Source: Amaricoccus solimangrovi
GTDB lineage: Bacteria; Pseudomonadota; Alphaproteobacteria; Rhodobacterales; Rhodobacteraceae
Assembly: GCF_006385685.1 (NCBI RefSeq)
Contig: NZ_VFRP01000005.1
Span: forward strand, 1 to 51,611
Length of the DNA stretch: 51,611 nt
Reading direction: 5' to 3'
Shown here: positions 506-43,929 of the stretch, piece by piece
Numbering within the stretch: the first letter of the stretch is position 1
Layout: each line of letters starts with the position of its first letter
Notes under the pieces: model-generated
Databases searched by the model: none
Seen by the model: only the letters and a program-made list of their open reading frames with translations
Told to the model about the DNA's origin: nothing
Position numbers and translations under genes: made by a program

Positions 506-715
506 CTTCACCTTCGGCGTCATGTCCGCGACTGGCTGCTCGCTTACAACTACGCCAAGCAACTCCAGGCGCTCCGCTTCAGGACGCCCCTCGAAGCAAT
601 TCAGCGGATCGCCGTGGAAAGGCCGGAACTGTTCGTTCGTCAGCCAAGCCAAGACATGCTGGGACTAAACATTCCGTTCGTCCCGCGATGTCGGTCCTTG
701 GGTCGGGCTGACGCC
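506..715 (+). pseudogene. IS481-type transposase C-terminal remnant
   Basis: The plus frame starting at 506 reads LHLRRHVRDWLLAYNYAKQ and continues with ALRFRTPLEAIQRI and an ERPELFVRQPSQDMLGLN tail. This matches the extreme C-terminus of IS481-family transposases. Neither the catalytic core nor a start codon is present. It abuts the end of the IS3 element, so it was probably truncated by that insertion or a later deletion. Confidence 0.75.
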
Positions 716-731
716 CCGACGCGATCAGTCC

Positions 732-992
732 GGTGAACGCGATCTCGTCGGGCACATCACCAAGGCGGGAGACGCGATGCTGCGAACCGTCCTGTTTCAA
801 CGCGGCGACGGTGATGATGCATCGGGCTCGCCCCTGCTGGCTCAAAGCCTGGGGGTCGCGGGTGGCCGGCCGGCGTGGGCAAAAGCGCGCGACGGTCGCG
901 GTGGCGCGCCGCATCGGGTGGCTCTTCACCGCATGTGGATGGACGGCACGGACTTCCGCATGACCCGAGACACGGAAACAGTCGCGGTCTGA
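732..992 (+). pseudogene. IS110-family transposase C-terminal remnant, frameshifted
   Basis: Pieces of the IS110/IS116 transposase C-terminus lie in alternating frames. ITKAGDAMLRTVLF is followed in another frame by NAATVMMHRARP, LKAWGSRVAGRRGQKR and VAVARRIG, then back in the first frame by LHRMWMDGTDFRMTR and a TGA at 990-992. At least two frameshifts break it. It cannot be functional. Confidence 0.8.
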
Positions 993-4149: not shown

Positions 4150-6069
4150 TCACTCGGCCGGGGTGTACCAGATGGGCGAGCTGTAGGCGCGTTCGTTCAC
4201 GGTCATCGGCACGTCATCGGTGAATTTCGAGTCCTTGAAATAGGCAGCGTCGTAGGCCGTCCAGCGCGGCGTCGGGATCTCGAGCACCCGGGCATAGTAG
4301 AAGGCCTTGAGCGCCGGATCGAAGTCGGGATCGGTCCAGACGGTGATCAGCTCGGGCGCCCCGATCGTGTTGGTGAAGGTCGCATGCTCGACATCCACGG
4401 TATTGCCGACGGGGGGCAGCTTGCCGTCGGCATCCGGTTCGCGGTCGCCCGACCAGGCAACGTCGTAGATCTTTTCCCGCATCCCGCCCTCCGCGTCCAG
4501 CCAGCCCTTGATGATCTGGATCCGGTCGAGGTTGCCGGAGAAGGGATCCTTCATCGCGGCGACGAGGAAGTTCGGGCCGCTCGCGCCCTCGGGGGCGGGC
4601 ATCAGGTCGCCCCCCATCGGCACGCCCTTGCCATAGCCGATATTGGCCGGGGTCCGGCCGAGGGCATCATCCGGCACGAAGTCCCAGCCGCCGAAGAAGC
4701 GCAGCGTGATCCGCGTGCCGGTGGTGCCGTAGACCTCCTTGCGCTTCATCGCGTCCCAGATCGAGGCCCGGGTGTTCTCGGGCGCCCAGACGGCGGTCAG
4801 ACCCGAGGCCCCCAGCTTCCAGTCCTTCACCGTGCGGCCGTCGAAGTCGAAAGCATTGCCGGTCGAGCGCTCCGGCCCCGGCTCGCTGGCCGGGAACTTG
4901 CCCCAGAAGTTGTTCTCCTCGGTGGAGGAGACGCCGGTATGGTCGTCGGTCGAGCCGATCAGCCCGAACTTGAACGGGTTGGTGCCGAATTCCTCCTGCA
5001 GCTTCAACCCACGCTTCAGCGCCTCGCGGGCATATTCATAATCGATCATGCCCGGCTCTTTCGGCACGACGTTCAGGTTGCCCTTGTCCCAGATCTCGAA
5101 ATCGGCGAACTCGTCGCTCGGGGCCAGTGAGGGGTGCTGTTCCGAAGTGCCCTTGCTCTGGGTGACCTCGTAGAGCGGCTCCCAGCGGGCGCGGGTCTCG
5201 GCCCATTTCGCGTCGATCGGCTTGCCGTCCGGGGTCTCCGTCGCGAACATCAGCCCGTTCGAAAGGTTGCCGTTATGCGGCACGGCCAGGACCTGACCGC
5301 CGGTCTTGTCCTCGTAGGCCTGCATCCAGTCCCAGAACTTGTTGGGGATGTCGCTGTCGAAGGTCGTCATCGGCCGGACCATGTCGGCCTTGTCCTTTCC
5401 GTCGCGGTAGACCACGTTGCGGTGCAGGTTGTTGCCCCCGCCATAGTTCGACGTCCATTCGTACCCGATCAGCGCGGTGAATTTTCCGGGATCGTTGTGG
5501 CTTTCGACGATCTCGGTCATCTTGTGCCAGATATCCATCTGGGTATTCGGGTCGGTCATCGGCTCGGGAACCTTGCCCTCGCCCTGCAGGGTGATCATCT
5601 CCATCACGACCGCGCCGGCCGCCGCGCCGCCCTTCTGCATCTCGTCATGCCAGCGCTTGAGCGTCGGGTCGGCCATCATCGTCGCGTCACCCTCGTAGAT
5701 GCTGGCGACGACGCCCAGGGCGTCGGAATGGTCGGCGACCATCAGGAAATCATAGGGACGCGAGAGCCGCACCGGCTGGCCGGTGCTCGAGGTGATCTCC
5801 TCCCCCTCGGCATAGCGCAGCGCCTCGTCCGGTCCGACGCGCGTCCCGCCGGCGAACGCGTCCGGCGACCAGCTGGTGTGCAGGTGTATCTCGCCCCAGA
5901 GCGGCTGGGTCGCGAAGTTTCGCCCGGCATAGGGGGAATAGCCCGGCTGGTTGAAGAAACGCTCAACCATGGCGGGATTGATCGTGCCCGCGTCGGTATT
6001 GACCTGCGCCGCGAGCGGACTGGCGAGGAATGTGGAGGAAAGGGCGAGAAGAGCTAAGCGTCGCGTCAT
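4150..6069 (-). CDS. Secreted DUF3604 protein
   Basis: A 639-residue protein with a clear Sec signal peptide (MTRRLALLALSSTFLASPLAAQ). The body carries PHP-like metal-binding blocks: LWGEIHLHTSWSPDAF, MVADHSDALGV, AVPHNGNLSNG and FGLIGSTDDHTG. The histidines and aspartates suggest a metal-dependent hydrolase in the periplasm or outside the cell; the substrate is unknown. The ATG at 6069 is chosen because the signal peptide begins there and a GAAAGG ribosome site lies just upstream. It heads the cluster with DUF302, parvulin-like and HupE-like genes. Confidence 0.88.
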   Translation of the reverse strand: MTRRLALLALSSTFLASPLAAQVNTDAGTINPAMVERFFNQPGYSPYAGRNFATQPLWGEIHLHTSWSPDAFAGGTRVGPDEALRYAEGEEITSSTGQPVRLSRPYDFLMVADHSDALGVVASIYEGDATMMADPTLKRWHDEMQKGGAAAGAVVMEMITLQGEGKVPEPMTDPNTQMDIWHKMTEIVESHNDPGKFTALIGYEWTSNYGGGNNLHRNVVYRDGKDKADMVRPMTTFDSDIPNKFWDWMQAYEDKTGGQVLAVPHNGNLSNGLMFATETPDGKPIDAKWAETRARWEPLYEVTQSKGTSEQHPSLAPSDEFADFEIWDKGNLNVVPKEPGMIDYEYAREALKRGLKLQEEFGTNPFKFGLIGSTDDHTGVSSTEENNFWGKFPASEPGPERSTGNAFDFDGRTVKDWKLGASGLTAVWAPENTRASIWDAMKRKEVYGTTGTRITLRFFGGWDFVPDDALGRTPANIGYGKGVPMGGDLMPAPEGASGPNFLVAAMKDPFSGNLDRIQIIKGWLDAEGGMREKIYDVAWSGDREPDADGKLPPVGNTVDVEHATFTNTIGAPELITVWTDPDFDPALKAFYYARVLEIPTPRWTAYDAAYFKDSKFTDDVPMTVNERAYSSPIWYTPAE

Positions 6070-6648
6070 GATCCGACCTTTCGGCAGACAAGTTGGGATC
6101 TCGGGTATGGGATGAAGATCAGAACCTCCGAACCCGCGGGTGAATCGCCATGGCCCGCGGATCGTAACACGGAATCCGCCGCGGGCACCCGACAACGACG
6201 TCGCCGCGGGCGCGGGCGCCACGCCGGAAGGACCCCTTCACCCACGAGATCATCCCCACGGCGGCCAGCTATTTCCGCCGCGCCTCCGCGGCCCTGTCCA
6301 AAGTCCTGGGCCGCTCCTCGGAGGGGAGGGCCAAACCTGGCGACCCGCATGCCTATCAGCGCCAGCGGGACCAGCGGCGGCCGCGGGGACGGCTTGTCCC
6401 TCGCGCGCGGGATCAGATCCCCGGCGCCGATCATGGATTTGTCCATGTCACGAGCCGCACCGGAAGCACGACCCCCGGTCCGTTCGCCGCGCAGGCGCCG
6501 CCCGGGTGGGAATTCACCCCCGCCGGTATCGGAAAGGTGTGAGCCCTGCCCCGCCCGCGCGGCCGCCGACCAGGCGATGACGGCGCCGGAGCGGCTCGAT
6601 CGGGGCCGTCAGGAGGGATAATTTCGCGGTATGGGCCGGAGGTACGGG
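6070..6648. other. 579-bp stretch with no recognisable gene
   Basis: This gap between the DUF3604 start and the ccdA remnant should hold the promoter of the minus-strand DUF3604 cluster, but I see no convincing -35/-10 pair. On the plus strand the frame from 6168 to a TGA at 6540-6542 is open and contains protein-like text (FTHEIIPTAASYFRRAS near 6240, VHVTSRTGSTTPGPFAAQ near 6440). It has no good start codon or ribosome site, so it may be a decayed gene. I do not recognise it. Confidence 0.4.
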
Positions 6649-38576: not shown

Positions 38577-38668
38577 TGTATAGCGAAAAATGTCACACTG
38601 ATCGTCGAAACCGTGGACATCATGTGACGCTTTTGAAAAGCTTGGGTTGCCTGGCCGAGGGAGGGATC

Positions 38669-39547
38669 ATGATCGACGCGGCGACGGCCGAACCGGCGGC
38701 CGTTCTCACCGCCTGGCGCTACGAGGCGGCGCGGATCAGCGCGGCCGCCGTCGTCGTCACGCTCTATGGGGACGTGGTCGCGCCTCGGGGCGGCGAGCTC
38801 TGGACCGGGAACATCATAGAGACGCTGGCGATGGCCGGGATCACCGAGACGCGTGTGCGGACCGCGCTGAGCCGGCTCGTCGCCGCCGGTCAGCTCGAGG
38901 GTGCGAAAGTGGGCAGGCGCAGCTACTATCGCCTGACGCCGGCGGCGGAGCGGGAGTTCGCCCTTGCCGCGCGACTCATCTACGCGCCCGTCGAGCCGCC
39001 GCCCCAACGCGGCTGGCATCTCGTGCTGCTACCCGACGGCGAGCGAGAGACCCACGCCCCGGCGCTCGCCCGCGCGCGCTTCGGCTTCGCCCTCCCCCAG
39101 CTCGCGGTGCTGCCCGACCGGGGGGAGCCGCTCCCGCCCCTGCCCGGGACGCATTTTCGCGCCACCACGGCCGACGATTTCGCCCTCGCCAGGGCCTGGC
39201 AGCTCGACGCCCTGGCGGAGCGGACACGGCGTTTCATCGACTTCTTCGCGGGTCTCGAAGCCCGCGCCGCCACGCCGGACCAAGCCTTGGGCCTGCGGCT
39301 CGCGCTGACTCACGCTTTCCGGGAAATCGCGCTGCGCGACCCCCACCTGCCGCCCGGGCTGCTGCCAGCCGACTGGCCCGGCTCCGCCGCGCGCCGTCTC
39401 TTCGTCGAGCTCTATCTCGCCCTGTCCCCCGCCACCGAGGAGATCATCTCCACCCGCTTCAAAGACCGCGTCGGCCCGCTCCGGCCGAACCGCGAGCGCC
39501 TCGACCGGAGGATCCGCGACCTCAAGGGCGAGCCGCTCACGGAGTGA
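38669..39547 (+). CDS. paaX: PaaX-family transcriptional repressor
   Basis: A 292-residue regulator. An N-terminal winged helix (LAMAGITETRVRTALSRLVA, KVGRRSYYRLTPAAERE) is followed by a PaaX core (GWHLVLLPDGERE, ALPQLAVLPDRG) and a C-terminal domain (AFREIALRDPHLPPGLLPAD, PGSAARRLFVELYLAL). PaaX repressors are released by phenylacetyl-CoA. ATG 38669 has GAGGGA upstream. It is divergent from the paaJ operon, as expected for a pathway repressor. Confidence 0.92.
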   Translation: MIDAATAEPAAVLTAWRYEAARISAAAVVVTLYGDVVAPRGGELWTGNIIETLAMAGITETRVRTALSRLVAAGQLEGAKVGRRSYYRLTPAAEREFALAARLIYAPVEPPPQRGWHLVLLPDGERETHAPALARARFGFALPQLAVLPDRGEPLPPLPGTHFRATTADDFALARAWQLDALAERTRRFIDFFAGLEARAATPDQALGLRLALTHAFREIALRDPHLPPGLLPADWPGSAARRLFVELYLALSPATEEIISTRFKDRVGPLRPNRERLDRRIRDLKGEPLTE

Positions 39548-39956
39548 GGGGCATTCGGTTCCATGGCGAACCTCCCGGCGCGACCGAGGTAGCAGGGGCG
39601 GACCGCCTCCTCGGCGCCGCGGCGCTTTCTGGCCACTGGGTGCCACAAACCGCTGTCCGGTCCGCCTTTCTCTAATATCTGGTAAGTCCATGCGCGCCTT
39701 CAAACCTCGGACCGGCCGCCGCTCGAATATACACGAGCGCGCCGGCTCGATCGAAAAATTCACGGCCGCGCCGACGTCCCCCATCGGCGGAACGCCGCAA
39801 GCTCCACGCCAGCGGAAATTCCCCCAGGCGCCCGACGGAGCGCGCGAGCGTCAGCCTTACCCAGGAGCGGCGCCCGGGGGCTCTCCGGTTGTCAAACGAA
39901 CTGGGGATTTGACCCCGTTGCCGCGCCGAAGAACTGACCCCTGTTCATGATGCTAA
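39548..39956. other. 409-bp gap with a possible IS end, no gene recognised
   Basis: I see no supported gene. A small hairpin-like GGGGATTTGACCCC at about 39903-39916, followed by GAACTGACCCCTGTTCATGA about 39930-39950, resembles the end of an IS21- or IS481-like element and abuts the truncated intein frame. This would explain why the upstream part of the methyltransferase gene is missing. The family is a guess. Confidence 0.35.
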
Positions 39957-40061
39957 GCAGATGATCGAGGGGCGGGTGGTCAACCAGCGCCGTATTATCG
40001 CGTCACCGCCTGGAGTAGCGCGAGATCCTTCGCCTTCGACGCCCTGCACGGGATCGGGCTG

Positions 40062-40157
40062 GTGCGCTCGGTCACGCCGGCGGGCCGCGCCCGCGTCTAC
40101 AACCTCGCAGTCCATGAAGATGAAAGCTACACAGCCGATGGAATCGCCGTCCACAAT
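40062..40157 (+). other. C-terminal intein segment (blocks F and G)
   Basis: Block F is RVYNLAVHEDESYTADG. Block G is GIAVHN, with the penultimate His and terminal Asn needed for Asn cyclisation, followed by Cys as +1 residue. These are the complete chemical requirements of the C-terminal splice junction. The upstream in-frame text DALHGIGLVRSVTPAGRA may also be intein. No N-terminal intein half (block A/B) is recognised nearby. Confidence 0.85.
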
Positions 40158-40889
40158 TGCCAGCCTTTCAGCGCGACAGGCGGCGGCCTCGGGTTTGATG
40201 ACGAGCGGCATCTCTGGCCCGCCGTCTTCCATCTCGTCGACACCCTCCGCCCTGACCTCGTCCTTGGCGAGCAGGTTGCGAGCGCGGCCGGGCTCCGCTG
40301 GCTCGATCTTGTTTCGGCTGACCTGGAGGGAGCGGGCTACGCCGTCGGGGCGCTCGATCTGTGCGCTGCGGGCTTCGGCCCGGCATGGGGGGAGGGGAGC
40401 GACGCGCAAGTCCTCCGGGCCGCGCTTCGCACTTGTCCCGATCCCATGGTCGCCTGGGACCTGCGCGATTTTGCCGATTGGGCTGACCGGAACCTCGTGG
40501 TGGGCGGCGCTCACGCCCGGAGCCGGCTCTACTGGTGCGGCCGCGCCAGGCGGGGCGATTCCGGGGACGCCAGGCGTGTCCGGGCTCTGGCCGCCGCGGA
40601 GCTGGCCGACGCCCCGGGCGAGCGACGGCGCGAAGAACGTCCGGACCCGCGAGGGCGCGCTCCGGGAGATCGCCCGGAAGGGCGCGCCGCGGGATCTGGC
40701 CTCGGTGGCGGTGATCACCAGCGGCTTGCCGGAGAGGACGGCTGCGTCCGGCCGGCTGAGCCCGGAGCTTTCCCGCTGGCTCATGCGTATCCCGGCCGCC
40801 TGGGACGCCTGCGCGCCTACGGCAACGCCCTCGACGCCGCGACCGCGCAGGCCTTCGTCGAAGCGGTGACGGCCGAGCTCGCCGGCTAG
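40062..40889 (+). CDS. C-intein fragment joined to C-terminal part of a DNA cytosine methyltransferase
   Basis: From a GTG at 40062, 275 codons run to TAG at 40887-40889; the frame is open back to 39957. Residues 1-32 end in an intein C-terminus (RVYNLAVHEDESYTADGIAV then HN). The next residue is the Cys of CQPFSATGGGLGF, motif IV of C5 methyltransferases, so the +1 residue is the catalytic cysteine. The rest is phage-type methyltransferase: LGEQVASAAGLRWLDLVSAD, AHARSRLYW and a motif X-like GRLGRLRAYGNALDA near the end. Motif I and the N-terminal half are missing. It is either a remnant or the C half of a split gene. Confidence 0.82.
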   Translation: MRSVTPAGRARVYNLAVHEDESYTADGIAVHNCQPFSATGGGLGFDDERHLWPAVFHLVDTLRPDLVLGEQVASAAGLRWLDLVSADLEGAGYAVGALDLCAAGFGPAWGEGSDAQVLRAALRTCPDPMVAWDLRDFADWADRNLVVGGAHARSRLYWCGRARRGDSGDARRVRALAAAELADAPGERRREERPDPRGRAPGDRPEGRAAGSGLGGGDHQRLAGEDGCVRPAEPGAFPLAHAYPGRLGRLRAYGNALDAATAQAFVEAVTAELAG

Positions 40890-41146
40890 GCCAGCGCCTC
40901 CGCCACCATCTCGGGGTGGCGCGCGATCACCCGGACATAGGCCACCGCGAAGTCCGGCGCGGTCGCGCGCGCCTGCTCCCAGTCGCGCAGGGTGCCGACC
41001 GGAACCCGGAACCGCTTCGCGAACTCGACCTGCGACAGGCCGAGGGCGGTGCGCGTCCGGCGGATCAGCCGGGCGCGCTGGCCGCGCTCCATCCCTTCCC
41101 CGGTCACGTCGAAATCTTCGGGATCGGTCGGGTCAGCGGGCATCAT
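40886..41146 (-). CDS. Xre-type antitoxin or regulator (toxin-antitoxin partner)
   Basis: An 86-residue protein with a C-terminal helix-turn-helix: RTALGLSQVEFAKRFRVPV and GTLRDWEQARATAPDFAV. The acidic N-terminus (PADPTDPEDFDVTGEGM) suits an antitoxin. ATG 41146 has GAGGAG seven bases upstream. The start lies inside the end of the preceding toxin frame, so the two form an overlapping pair. Its stop shares the CTAG at 40886-40889 with the convergent methyltransferase stop. Confidence 0.82.
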   Translation of the reverse strand: MMPADPTDPEDFDVTGEGMERGQRARLIRRTRTALGLSQVEFAKRFRVPVGTLRDWEQARATAPDFAVAYVRVIARHPEMVAEALA

Positions 41147-41404
41147 GATATGATCTCTCCTCACCTCTGTTGCTCCTTCTCACCGAAATGAAGCGGGGCA
41201 GGTCGTCCCACCAGACGAACAGGGCGGTAAACAGCTTCTCGTCCACGATGCCCACGACCTTGAACCTCTCCTCGCCGTCCATCTCGCGGATCGACGGGAG
41301 ATCAGGTGGTCCTTATCCTCGAAGATCCGGTCGCCGAAGATCAGCGGGAGGCCGTGCCGTTTCCGGTTGATGGCGTCCTTCTTGGGGTCGAACCTGTCTG
41401 CCAT
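41133..41404 (-). pseudogene. BrnT-type toxin, frameshifted
   Basis: From ATG 41404: MADRFDPKKDAINRKRHGLP, LIFGDRIFEDKDHLI. The frame is then lost near 41300. One base appears deleted, and the expected continuation REMDGEERFKVVGIVDEKLF, PRFISVRRSNRGEERSYDAR runs in the next frame to a TGA at 41133-41135. This is the BrnT ribonuclease-toxin pattern, with N-terminal FDPxKDAxNxxKHG and C-terminal ISVRRSxxxEE. The unshifted reading gives an unrelated tail. The downstream helix-turn-helix antitoxin gene is intact. Confidence 0.8.
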
Positions 41405-41507: not shown

Positions 41508-42150
41508 TCAGGGGCGGAACAGGCGGCGCTTCGCGAGGTCCGCCCTGAGTTCGGCGAACTCGGCCCGGAGCTCCCCGAGCGTTTCCGCGGGGGGAGCTTG
41601 TCGCCATGATCGACCAGGGCCATCTCGTCCGGCATATGGGTGTAGACGAGGATCCACCCCGCCATGCCCTTGATCACATAGGCGCCGTCGATGAAGACGC
41701 TGTCGTCGAAGGCGTGATGCGTCACGCGAAGGACCGGCCCGCCGGCCGGAACACCGGCGCCGGAAACCGCGCCCCCTCGTCCGCCTCGCGATCGAGCGCG
41801 AGGAGGAGCGCGCCCATCTGCGCCGCGAGAAGTCCGAACGCTTCCGCCGCGCCGCCCCCCGAAGGCGAGCCGCCCGGCGCGGCGAAGATCGCCCCGACGA
41901 GTTCGCTCCGCGCGAGCATCGGCACGCCGATCTGACTCTGCGCGTCCGCGAGTCCCGGCGGCGGTATCTCCGCCGCGCCGGGCGGCTGCTCGCGGATCGC
42001 CGCGCCGAAACGGCGGAGCCGGCTCATGTCGCTCACCTTTACGACCCGGCGCGCCCGCGCCGCGCCGCGCCGCCCGCGATCCCTTCCCCGAGCTCCACCT
42101 CGGAGCCGGCGCCCGAGGCCGGGTAGCTTGCGACCGTCACCAGCGCCGAC
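41508..42150 (-). pseudogene. GAF-domain protein pseudogene with several frameshifts
   Basis: Minus-strand pieces in different frames appear to make up one former gene. LVTVASYPASGAGSEVELGE and GIAGGAA are followed in a shifted frame by RVVKVSDMSRLRRFGAAIRE and QSQIGVPMLARSELVGAIFA (a GAF core). After another shift comes HHAFDDSVFIDGAYVIKGMA, and a tail ETLGELRAEFAELRADLAKR ends at a stop at 41508-41510. At least two frameshifts separate these. The GAF call is moderate; the C-terminal DDSVFIDGxYVIKG block recalls a domain seen after GAF domains in alphaproteobacteria. Confidence 0.6.
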
Positions 42151-42411
42151 CGGCGGGATCGCGCTGAAAGAAGATGGCCGGCGCAAGGGAAACTCGCCTG
42201 CGCGCGGCCTCCCCCCGCTGTCCCCGGGGGTGCGACCCGAACACCCGGCCGCCGATCGAGCGCGCGATCCGACCGGTTCGTCGGCTCCTGGCGGCCGTCC
42301 GCGCGGGTGCTTGGCGGGTGAAGTCCGGCATCGAAGCCGTCAAGGCCGGGATCGCGACCGACCGCGTGGTGGCAACATAGCGCTCAATCAGCGCCCTGGC
42401 AGATGTAGGCG

Positions 42412-42450
42412 CAAAGTTAGAATGTCGCACCTGAGCAAAGTAGAATGTCA
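42412..42450 (+). repeat. Left terminal inverted repeat of the ISNCY-type element
   Basis: The segment from CAAAGTTAGAATGTCGCACC to AGCAAAGTAGAATGTCA matches the reverse complement of 43927-43965 over nearly its whole length, with two internal copies of an AAAGTTAGAATGTC-like unit. This marks the left end of the element. Nothing is recognised between the GAF pseudogene and this end (about 42150-42411). Confidence 0.8.
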
Positions 42451-42487
42451 GGCTTCCCTTCCGGAATCGAGGAATTGGGGGCTGGAC

Positions 42488-43929
42488 ATGGTGCTGGTGC
42501 TGATGAGCGAGCGCGAGTTGAACCGGATCGAGGTGCTTTCGCGGATTGCCGACGGCAGCCTGTCGGTGGCCGGGGCGGCGACGCTGCTGGCGTTGAGCCC
42601 GCGACAGGTGCACCGGTTGATGCGCGCGTTCCGGCAGGACGGCGCGTTGTCGGTTCGGCACAAGGCCCGGGATCGACGCTCGAACCACCGGATCCGCGAT
42701 GGCGTGCGCGACTACGCCCTGGCGCTGATCCGGGAGCAGTATGCCGACTTCGGACCGACGCTTGCCGCGGAGATGCTGGGCCGGCATCACGGCCTGGGGG
42801 TTTCCCGCGAGACCGTGCGCGGCTGGATGACGACCGCCGGCCTCTGGCTTCCGAGAGCTGAGCGGCGGCGGCTGCATCGGCCGCGGCTGCGCCGCGAGGC
42901 CGTGTGCGAGCTGATCCAGATCGACGGCTCCGCTCACCGCTGGTTCGAGGACCGCGGTCCGGCCTGCACGCTGCTCGTCTTCATCGACGACGCGACGAGC
43001 GCGCTGATGCAGCTGCGTTTCGTGCCGGCGGAGAGCACCTTCGCCTATTTCGAGGCGCTCGAACACTATCTGCGGGCGCATGGCCGACCGGTGGCGTTCT
43101 ACTCCGACCGGCACTCGGTCTTCCGTGTGGCGGCCGAGGAGGCCAGAAGCGGTCACGGCATGACGCAATTCGGCCGCGCGTTGAACGAGCTCAACATTGA
43201 GATCCTGTGCGCGGCGTCGAGCCAGGCCAAGGGCCGTGTCGAACGGGCGAACCGCACGCTGCGGGACCGCCTGGTCAAGGAGCTGCGTCTCGCCGGCGTC
43301 TCCGACATCGCTTCGGGCAACGCCTTCCTCCCGGCCTTCACCGAGCGGTTCAACCGGCAGTTCGCCACGCCCCGGTCCGGCCGGACAACCTGCACCGGTC
43401 CCTGAACGTGGAACCCGACCGGCTGCGCGAGATCCTGTGCTAGCGCGACCAGCGCCATGTCAGCCAGCAGCTGAGCTTCAATTACGAACGGCGCAAGGTC
43501 ATGCTCGAGGTCAACTGCTCGAGGTCAACGACGTGACCCGCAGCCTGGCCGGTCAGTATGTCGATACCTACGTCTTCCCGGACGGCCGCCTCGGCCTCGA
43601 CTGGCCTCGCCCTGCCCTGCACCGTCTTCGATAAGCACCAGCGCGTCACCCACGCCGCCATCGTCGAGAGCAAGCATCTCGGCGCCGTCCTTGCCTACAT
43701 CAAGGAGCAGCAGGAAAAGGCGCCGCCGGCACCGCTCCCGGCCGTCGGCAAGCAGCGTACCAGCTATACCCCGACTGGCAGGAAGTCCCCGGGCCGAAAG
43801 ACCTTTGTCGACCAGATCGCCGCGCAACGACCCAACGCGGCCGCAGACGCGGCCCGCGCGGGGCCGGCCAGCCCTCCGATACTTGAGGTCTCCGGCCTGG
43901 CCGGCCCCGCTCCGCCACCGCCAGAGTGA
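42488..43929 (+). pseudogene. ISNCY (IS1202-like) transposase, degenerate
   Basis: MVLVLMSERELNRIEVLSRI, helix-turn-helix LLALSPRQVHRLMRAF and the integrase core (ELIQIDGSAHRWFEDRG, LVFIDDATSALMQLRF, SSQAKGRVERANRTLRDRL) are intact to about 43370. Then the gene decays. There is a frameshift near 43372, a nonsense TAG at 43441-43443 where Trp is usual, a 14-bp tandem duplication at 43502-43529 and another frameshift near 43610. The C-terminal text (FDKHQRVTHAAIVESKHLGA, RKSPGRKTFVDQ) is still readable to a TGA at 43927-43929. Confidence 0.88.

What the first reader, a model, noticed from the sequence alone, without database searches (positions are those of the whole stretch)
40062..40889. C-terminal intein half placed exactly at the catalytic cysteine of a DNA cytosine methyltransferase
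An intein end (VYNLAVHEDESYTADG, then VHN) is followed without a gap by CQPFS, the motif IV cysteine of a C5 methyltransferase. The required +1 nucleophile of splicing is thus the catalytic residue. The C-extein keeps motif VIII-like and X-like blocks with no frameshift over about 240 codons, although the N half of both intein and enzyme is absent. A GTG start lies 32 codons before the junction, near the usual size of a split-intein C half. Either an IS-linked deletion left a scrap, or this is the C piece of a split-intein methyltransferase whose N piece is elsewhere.
Basis: partly seen in the sequence, partly recalled or inferred. Interest (0 to 1): 0.82.

Follow-up and report, generated by a model that had tools for sequence, protein, structure and literature searches.

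The report
Broken methyltransferase gene with intein remnant
This looks like the dead tail end of a phage DNA-methylating enzyme gene that once carried a self-splicing protein insert (an intein) exactly at its active site; a jumping-element scar marks where the front half was lost, so it is a genuine but ordinary gene fossil rather than half of a working two-piece system.

Summary
Window 39993-40157 encodes the last 55 residues of an intein (TIGR01443, E 4.3e-7), followed without a gap by CQPFS of a phage C5 cytosine methyltransferase (phrog_363, E 8.7e-29). Contiguous (cis) inteins at this exact site were found in six records, among them EBPR siphovirus 2 gp44.

The split-intein reading is not supported. 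Intein homology continues upstream of the GTG at 40062, crosses a one-base frameshift between 39964 and 39993 (29 nt; 30 in 4 of 4 cis inteins measured) and stops at a 64-bp scar of an internally deleted IS, of which a longer copy stands elsewhere in the genome. No N half was found in the 4.86-Mb draft genome. It is an IS-linked pseudogene fragment.

A side result may matter more: in 104 of 107 related C-exteins a second ORF stays open in the +1 frame (124 stops against 357 expected), with codon bias around a possible internal start. It looks like a conserved overlapping gene.

The parts
39890..39953 (.). Scar of an internally deleted insertion sequence: 39890-39917 matches one end and 39913-39953 the other end of an IS-like element at G000:C61; the two pieces overlap in CCCCG (39913-39917)
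   Evidence: blastn: 39913-39953 = L213:6621-6661 at 95%; 39890-39924 = L213:4953-4991 at 90% with a 4-base gap. The element between them in L213 holds a 502-aa ORF, 5032-6540 minus, with an rve match of 32.2 bits, cut-off 32.6.
39954..39992 (+). Leftmost surviving intein stretch (KQMIEGRVVNQRR), in the frame of 39961 and out of frame with the rest
   Evidence: IEGR block in cis inteins L045, L125 and L172 (IEVR in L127) at fixed spacing from the next block. By alignment score alone this stretch does not stand out.
39964..39993 (+). Interval holding a one-base frameshift relative to the cis inteins (29 nt here, 30 nt in 4 of 4 relatives measured)
39993..40157 (+). C-terminal 55 codons of the intein (YYRVTAW...DGIAVHN), ending in HN
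   Evidence: tblastn with L045 70% over 129 aa across the junction, E 8e-54; L172 67% over 130 aa; TIGR01443 E 4.3e-7; alignment A4
40062..40064 (+).
40158..40160 (+). Cys codon: intein +1 position and C5 MTase motif IV Cys
40158..40889 (+). C-extein: C-terminal part of a phage-type C5 cytosine methyltransferase, with a ~43-aa insert before the motif VIII-like block that is shared with L046
   Evidence: phrog_363 E 8.7e-29; PF00145 19.2 bits; alignment A1
40198..40869 (+). Overlapping ORF in the +1 frame, from ATG 40198; mechanically open from 39961; relative of phrog_1008
   Evidence: phrog_1008 E 1.6e-11 and phrog_31772 E 1.1e-10; family-wide tests

Best explanation
The feature is a pseudogene fragment. 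A phage or prophage once carried a C5 cytosine methyltransferase gene interrupted by a cis-splicing LAGLIDADG intein just before the catalytic Cys, as intact relatives still do. An rve-type insertion sequence came to lie inside the intein. DNA on its left, with the whole N-extein, the intein N-terminal splicing domain and most or all of the homing endonuclease domain, was lost, and the IS itself collapsed to a 64-bp scar. The surviving intein stretch also carries a one-base frameshift. What remains is 3' debris that cannot splice by itself. Shown: the anatomy, the cis relatives, the scar, the frameshift, and that searches found no N half. Inferred: the order of events, that the IS caused the deletion, and that the piece makes nothing useful.
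For: Cis inteins at the same site: L045 ORF 6747-8927 (726 aa), L172 4752-7226, EBPR siphovirus 2 gp44 (831 aa), Euzebya plasmid MTase (718 aa), L043 (713 aa), Bifidobacterium p1 across its record origin; aligned (without Bifidobacterium). Domain matches: L045 Hint_2 40.2 and LAGLIDADG_3 34.8 bits, both over cut-off; gp44 LAGLIDADG_3 40.6 over cut-off, Hint_2 27.8 just under 28.4. Intein homology upstream of the GTG, 29- instead of 30-nt spacing, intein codon at the GTG. IS scar abutting the truncation. Own genome: the only match of the 726-aa cis protein at E<=10 is the window piece; PF00145 finds this piece and two other loci, each with N-terminal and C-terminal blocks in one open frame; TIGR01445 intein N-term finds nothing (weak, see against).
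Against: The C-extein frame is still open over 243 codons, which could suggest constraint; but the +1 frame is open too, and only 0.49 stops are expected there by shuffling, so openness says little. TIGR01445 is a weak probe: the known cis relatives score only 13-17 bits (cut-off 24.5) or are not listed (gp44), so its negative proves little although 5 of 14 control genomes ring; the N-half claim rests mainly. The genome is a 135-contig draft, so an N half in a gap is not excluded. The one-base shift could be a sequencing error; the truncation does not depend on it. The 39954-39992 stretch is short and not significant by alignment score alone. The absence of the intein from other genomes of the order comes from three scored candidates per genome at E<=1e-10.
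Confidence: 0.94

Rival explanations
1. C piece of a natural split-intein methyltransferase: GTG 40062 starts a 32-residue C-intein fused to the C-extein, and an N-extein/N-intein gene elsewhere supplies the rest by trans-splicing.
For: 32 codons is near the usual C-intein size (recalled), the junction residues H-N-C are intact and the extein frame is open. The draft assembly leaves gaps.
Against: No N half of enzyme or intein found in the own genome (one search is a weak probe); intein-interior sequence upstream of the GTG, its outer part out of frame; truncation at an IS scar; the six records found with this intein site have it in cis.
Confidence: 0.02
2. The surviving piece is used in some other way: a truncated C-terminal MTase protein, or the overlapping +1-frame protein (phrog_1008 relative), is still expressed and selected.
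For: Both frames are open; the +1-frame ORF has phrog_1008 E 1.6e-11 and belongs to a set with signs of dual-frame constraint.
Against: In the window itself the +1 frame is no more open than shuffles give (1 stop, 0.49 expected, 92.8% of shuffles at or below). The AAGGAG-like stretch seen before the ATG in many relatives is absent here. The scar and frameshift suggest decay.
Confidence: 0.035
3. Chance resemblance: no intein, just a methyltransferase fragment with an odd N-terminal extension.
For: Only the last 55 residues plus about 10 out of frame are left.
Against: TIGR01443 E 4.3e-7; 70% identity over 129 residues, across the junction, to a complete intein-bearing protein.
Confidence: 0.005

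Closest known systems
EBPR siphovirus 2 gp44 (JF412297.1, annotated 'methylase', 831 aa)
   Same: Same C5 MTase family, same insertion point directly before the motif IV Cys, intein end VYNLAVDGDESYTVDGIVVHN|CQPFS
   Different: Complete: N-extein, intein N block (CFPAGALVLT), LAGLIDADG domain, one open frame. The window lacks all of these.
IMG/VR contigs 3300021437_000026 (L045/L171) and 3300049579_000051 (L172/L196)
   Same: Cis intein at the same site; L045 is the best match to the window piece among the five cis proteins compared (70% over 129 aa)
   Different: Intact; the window piece is 5'-truncated at an IS scar and frameshifted
Euzebya pacifica plasmid MTase WP_164711080.1, Bifidobacterium longum p1, Bacillota MAG L043
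   Same: Intein directly before the motif IV Cys in other C5 MTases, so the site is a recurrent one
   Different: More distant MTases; L043 has a shorter intein of about 171 residues by its ORF
Inteins of actinophage DNA methylases (PMC5050341: passages; PMC9957025: abstract, outline and passages)
   Same: Phage DNA methylases invaded by inteins at conserved sites; PMC5050341 describes insertion at active centres as a general theme
   Different: PMC5050341 lists its DNMT-1/2 families as N6/N4 methylases; the methylase type of PMC9957025 was not seen in what I read. Neither passage set mentions a C5 catalytic Cys (the terms 'cysteine' and 'catalytic' have 0 hits in PMC9957025).
Natural split inteins / fractured genes (recalled, e.g. 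gp41-1, NrdJ-1)
   Same: Size of the C fragment counted from the GTG
   Different: No N partner found, upstream intein sequence present, frameshift and IS scar

Membership tests
Intein | C-terminal splicing region ending in HN before Cys/Ser/Thr | tested here: met
   TIGR01443 E 4.3e-7...VHN|C
Intein | N-terminal splicing region (blocks A and B) in cis | tested here: not met
   No match upstream of 39954; IS scar there
Split intein | Separate gene with N-extein plus N-intein in the same genome | tested here: not met
   TIGR01445 also 0 but that probe is weak for this intein type. Draft of 135 contigs.
Split intein | C piece begins at its own start, with no further intein sequence upstream | tested here: not met
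   YYRVTAWSS...GLV and KQMIEGRVVNQRR lie upstream of GTG 40062
Split intein | Trans-splicing activity | not testable with these tools
   Needs an experiment
C5 cytosine DNA methyltransferase | Motif IV with catalytic Cys | tested here: met
   CQPFS at 40158; phrog_363 E 8.7e-29; PF00145 19.2 bits, under its cut-off of 22
C5 cytosine DNA methyltransferase | Motif I (SAM binding) in the same gene | tested here: not met
   N-extein absent
C5 cytosine DNA methyltransferase | Motif VIII-like and X-like blocks | tested here: met
   HARSRLYW and RLRAYGNA align with relatives; the Pro after GNA is missing here, as in 6 of 8 relatives
Insertion-sequence scar | Both ends of one element brought together, with a longer copy elsewhere | tested here: met
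   exact IS ends and target duplication were not established
Overlapping gene (+1 frame, phrog_1008) | Frame more open than synonymous shuffles across homologues | tested here: met
   107 CDSs: 124 stops against 356.6 +/- 11.8; +2 frame 1248 against 1089.6 +/- 24.6. Window alone: not significant.
Overlapping gene (+1 frame, phrog_1008) | Recognisable translation start | tested here: inconclusive
   ATG at codon 13 in 93 of 107; GAT at the underlying Asp in 91 of 102 against 319 of 769 elsewhere; SD-like stretch 74 of 104 against 56.3 expected from codon usage
Overlapping gene (+1 frame, phrog_1008) | Translated product | not testable with these tools
   Needs ribosome profiling or mass spectrometry

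The most novel reading that the evidence does not exclude
The DNA left in this remnant belongs to a dual-coded region. In phage C5 methyltransferases of this family the part after the catalytic Cys carries a second, genuinely translated protein in the +1 frame (phrog_1008), starting at an internal ATG about 13 codons after the Cys. One gene would make both a methyltransferase and a second conserved phage protein of unknown role. The intein sits immediately upstream of the overlap, so it would split only the methyltransferase and leave the second gene untouched.
Probability: 0.6. Interest if true: 0.7.

Novelty: new member of a known kind. Interest (0 to 1): 0.35.

Why it matters
As a fragment it matters little. 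It does point to a recurrent intein insertion point exactly at the catalytic Cys of C5 methyltransferases, where the splicing nucleophile and the enzyme's catalytic residue are the same residue: six cis records, from phage and viral contigs, two Actinomycetota plasmids and a Bacillota MAG. My paper searches listed no report of that for C5 enzymes, though insertion at active centres is a known intein theme (PMC5050341, passage). The relatives gathered to settle the finding also suggest a widespread overlapping gene inside phage methyltransferases: the +1-frame product of one relative (L045) matched 212 of 50,697 phage records. If translated, it would change the annotation of hundreds of phage genes.

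Tried and rejected
Split intein with a distant partner: searched with the cis homologue, the intein N-terminal family and PF00145; no N half. The TIGR01445 search is a weak test, because the cis relatives themselves score below its cut-off. Intein remnants left of the scar: local alignment of 39560-39995 in three frames against five cis proteins gave nothing more than 3 s.d. above 200 shuffles; the short IEGR stretch lies inside that region and rests on its fixed spacing alone. Same fragment in relatives: 10 of 61 genomes match at E<=0.001, one being the own genome; the other nine only in the MTase part, from query residue 63 on. In the order sample 46 of 292 match L045 at E<=1e-10, with no listed match inside the intein except in the own genome, but only three candidates per genome were scored. 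In-frame fusion of the +1-frame protein to a C5 catalytic domain: 0 of 304 matched domains lay in an ORF with a PCQ-type motif (narrow pattern). AlphaFold of the +1-frame protein: mean pLDDT 64, pTM 0.32; block means 81-89 over residues 21-60 (helix and beta hairpin), the rest poor; Foldseek against PDB: 206 matches at E<=10, none at E<=0.001; PDB sequence search at E<=1: none. Inconclusive; the window row was given in the wrong frame; one search has it right, and only the alignment went to AlphaFold; the frame given for 38647-39544 was probably wrong, so its empty result means nothing. One search failed on a file name and was redone. One search's motif scan was too narrow to count frames. Papers: PMC9957025 abstract, outline and passages; PMC5050341 and PMC11855218 passages (the latter with its abstract); all other papers, PMC8616854 included, search listing only.

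Full report
What is there. The window frame 39957-40886 is open and reads ...YYRVTAWSSARSFAFDALHGIGLVRSVTPAGRARVYNLAVHEDESYTADGIAVHN|CQPFSATGGG.... NCBIfam places an intein C-terminal splicing region there (TIGR01443, E 4.3e-7). The residues after the junction are a C5 methyltransferase from motif IV on: PF00145 19.2 bits, below its 22-bit cut-off, and phrog_363 E 8.7e-29.

Cis relatives. Proteins with an intein at exactly this point were found in IMG/VR (L045, 726 aa; L172, 825 codons stop to stop), in EBPR siphovirus 2 (gp44, 831 aa), on an Euzebya pacifica plasmid (718 aa), in a Bacillota MAG (L043, 713 aa) and on Bifidobacterium longum p1, where the gene runs across the record origin. L045 has Hint_2 and LAGLIDADG_3 over their cut-offs; gp44 has LAGLIDADG_3 over and Hint_2 just under. 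All six place CFPAG(T/A) after (S/G)xP and end in VHN|CQ. So this is a recurrent cis-intein site in C5 methyltransferases. The close intein allele looks rare: a viral scan with the gp44 intein, which finds close relatives only, gave 5 loci, two of them at 58-59% identity over the whole intein. In a 292-genome sample of the order no listed match fell inside the intein part of the L045 query except in the window's own genome (E<=1e-10, three candidates scored per genome).

Why it is not a split intein. Homology to the cis inteins continues upstream of GTG 40062: tblastn with L045 aligns from 39993 at 70% identity over 129 residues. In the four cis inteins measured (L045, L125, L172, L127) an IE(G/V)R block lies exactly 10 codons before the next aromatic block; the window has IEGR at 39964 and the aromatic block at 39993, 29 nt apart, so the two stretches lie in different frames. 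The GTG stands at a position that is GTC in L125 and L172 and ATT in L045, and the 20 nt before it show no clear ribosome-binding site. The GTG is most simply an inherited codon.

The breakpoint. Window 39913-39953 matches G000:C61 (L213:6621-6661) at 95%, and 39890-39924 matches L213:4953-4991 at 90% with a 4-base gap. Between these two places L213 carries a 502-aa ORF with an rve match (PF00665, 32.2 bits, cut-off 32.6). The window thus holds two ends of this element fused at a shared CCCCG, a 64-bp scar, and the intein starts at its right edge. I did not establish the exact IS ends or a target duplication. Left of the scar, 39560-39889 shows no significant methyltransferase or intein homology. 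The simplest history is IS insertion, loss of the DNA to its left, and internal deletion of the IS; the order, and whether the IS caused the loss, are inference.

No partner. The 726-aa cis protein finds only the window piece in the 4.86-Mb genome at E<=10. PF00145 gives six matches: this piece and two other loci, at C71 and C24, each with N-terminal and C-terminal blocks in one open frame, so neither looks like an N half. The intein N-terminal family TIGR01445 finds nothing, while 5 of 14 control genomes ring. That last test is weak, since the cis relatives score only 13-17 bits against it, below its 24.5 cut-off, and gp44 is not listed. The assembly is a draft in 135 contigs, so the absence is strong but not absolute.

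State of the C-extein. Against eight relatives it keeps the invariant CQPFS, DERHLWP and GEQV blocks, an altered motif VIII-like block (HARSRLYW where the relatives have forms like HIRQRLYW) and RLRAYGNA. A ~43-residue insert before motif VIII is shared with L046, so it is inherited. A ...DWL tract before the WRP block, present in 8 of 8 relatives, is not recognisable here; that fits decay but could be lineage variation.

A second frame. In assembling relatives I noticed that the +1 frame of the C-extein is also open. The test set was 107 distinct CDSs from 106 loci, found by a motif pattern among 124 loci (L003-L125, L172); loci without a match, and duplicates, were dropped, and the distant L043 stayed in. 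Their +1 frames hold 124 stops against 356.6 +/- 11.8 after synonymous-codon shuffling; the +2 frame, as control, holds 1248 against 1089.6 +/- 24.6. The +1 frame is open from codon 12 to 85% of the MTase frame in 104 of 107. The part before the Cys shows much less of this (74 genes: 166 against 185.0 +/- 6.3). Over 120 of 397 eligible homologue pairs (L043 left out) +1-frame identity is 0.479 against 0.278 after shuffling; the +2 control is raised too (0.406 against 0.256), since relatedness itself preserves codons, so only the difference counts.

Signs of an internal start. A +1-frame ATG stands at codon 13 in 93 of 107. It follows from Asp written GAT, and Asp is GAT there in 91 of 102 against 319 of 769 other Asp codons before a G. 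The Phe codon before it is TTT in 95 of 104, against 213 of 870 elsewhere in these genes, and the Gly codon is GGG in 82 of 104, against 687 of 3213 Gly codons elsewhere. An SD-like purine stretch lies upstream in 74 of 104, but 56.3 would be expected from each gene's own codon usage, so that sign is weak. These biases could also reflect plain DNA conservation among relatives.

Standing of the second frame. PHROGs holds the +1-frame product as phrog_1008 and phrog_31772, labelled DNA methyltransferase; the products scanned have no match in Pfam (3 of 3) or NCBIfam (2 of 2). Xanthomonas phage PhiXhv-5 is annotated with both ORFs. phrog_1008 was matched in 25 of 196 genomes of the order, the own genome included. 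Against it: AlphaFold gives only a helix and hairpin with good confidence (mean pLDDT 64, pTM 0.32), with no PDB match, and in the window itself the openness is not significant. Paper searches listed no report of it (listings only); the nearest thing seen is the out-of-frame HNH insertion of PMC11855218 (abstract and passages), which is different.

Verdict. The finding is a true intein end in a broken, IS-truncated methyltransferase gene: a decayed member of a known kind. The split-intein hypothesis is not supported.

Noticed in passing
window 40198-40869 (+); relatives L003-L125, L172: Overlapping ORF in the +1 frame of phage C5 methyltransferases (phrog_1008): 124 stops observed against 357 expected in 107 CDSs, ATG at codon 13 after the catalytic Cys in 93 of 107, codon bias around it. 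Possibly a real dual-coded gene.
   Followed up: partly
L043, L127, L128/L223, L125, L045, L172: Inteins sit directly before the motif IV Cys of C5 methyltransferases in a phage, two viral contigs, two Actinomycetota plasmids and a Bacillota MAG: a recurrent intein site at the catalytic residue.
   Followed up: partly
window 672-989 and L213 4628-4946: A 319-bp stretch is 98% identical in the window and at G000:C61, ending a few bases before the rve-type IS begins in C61; there it lies within a 372-aa ORF.
   Followed up: no
window 40886-41164 (-): Helix-turn-helix protein (HTH_3, E 2.2e-6; MqsA_antitoxin below its cut-off) directly after the remnant, possibly an antitoxin-like regulator.
   Followed up: no
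window 42026-43405 (+): ORF with winged-helix matches (HTH_29, HTH_23), perhaps transposase-like, so the remnant may lie in mobile-element debris between a thiolase gene and an FAD-oxidoreductase/aminomethyltransferase gene.
   Followed up: no
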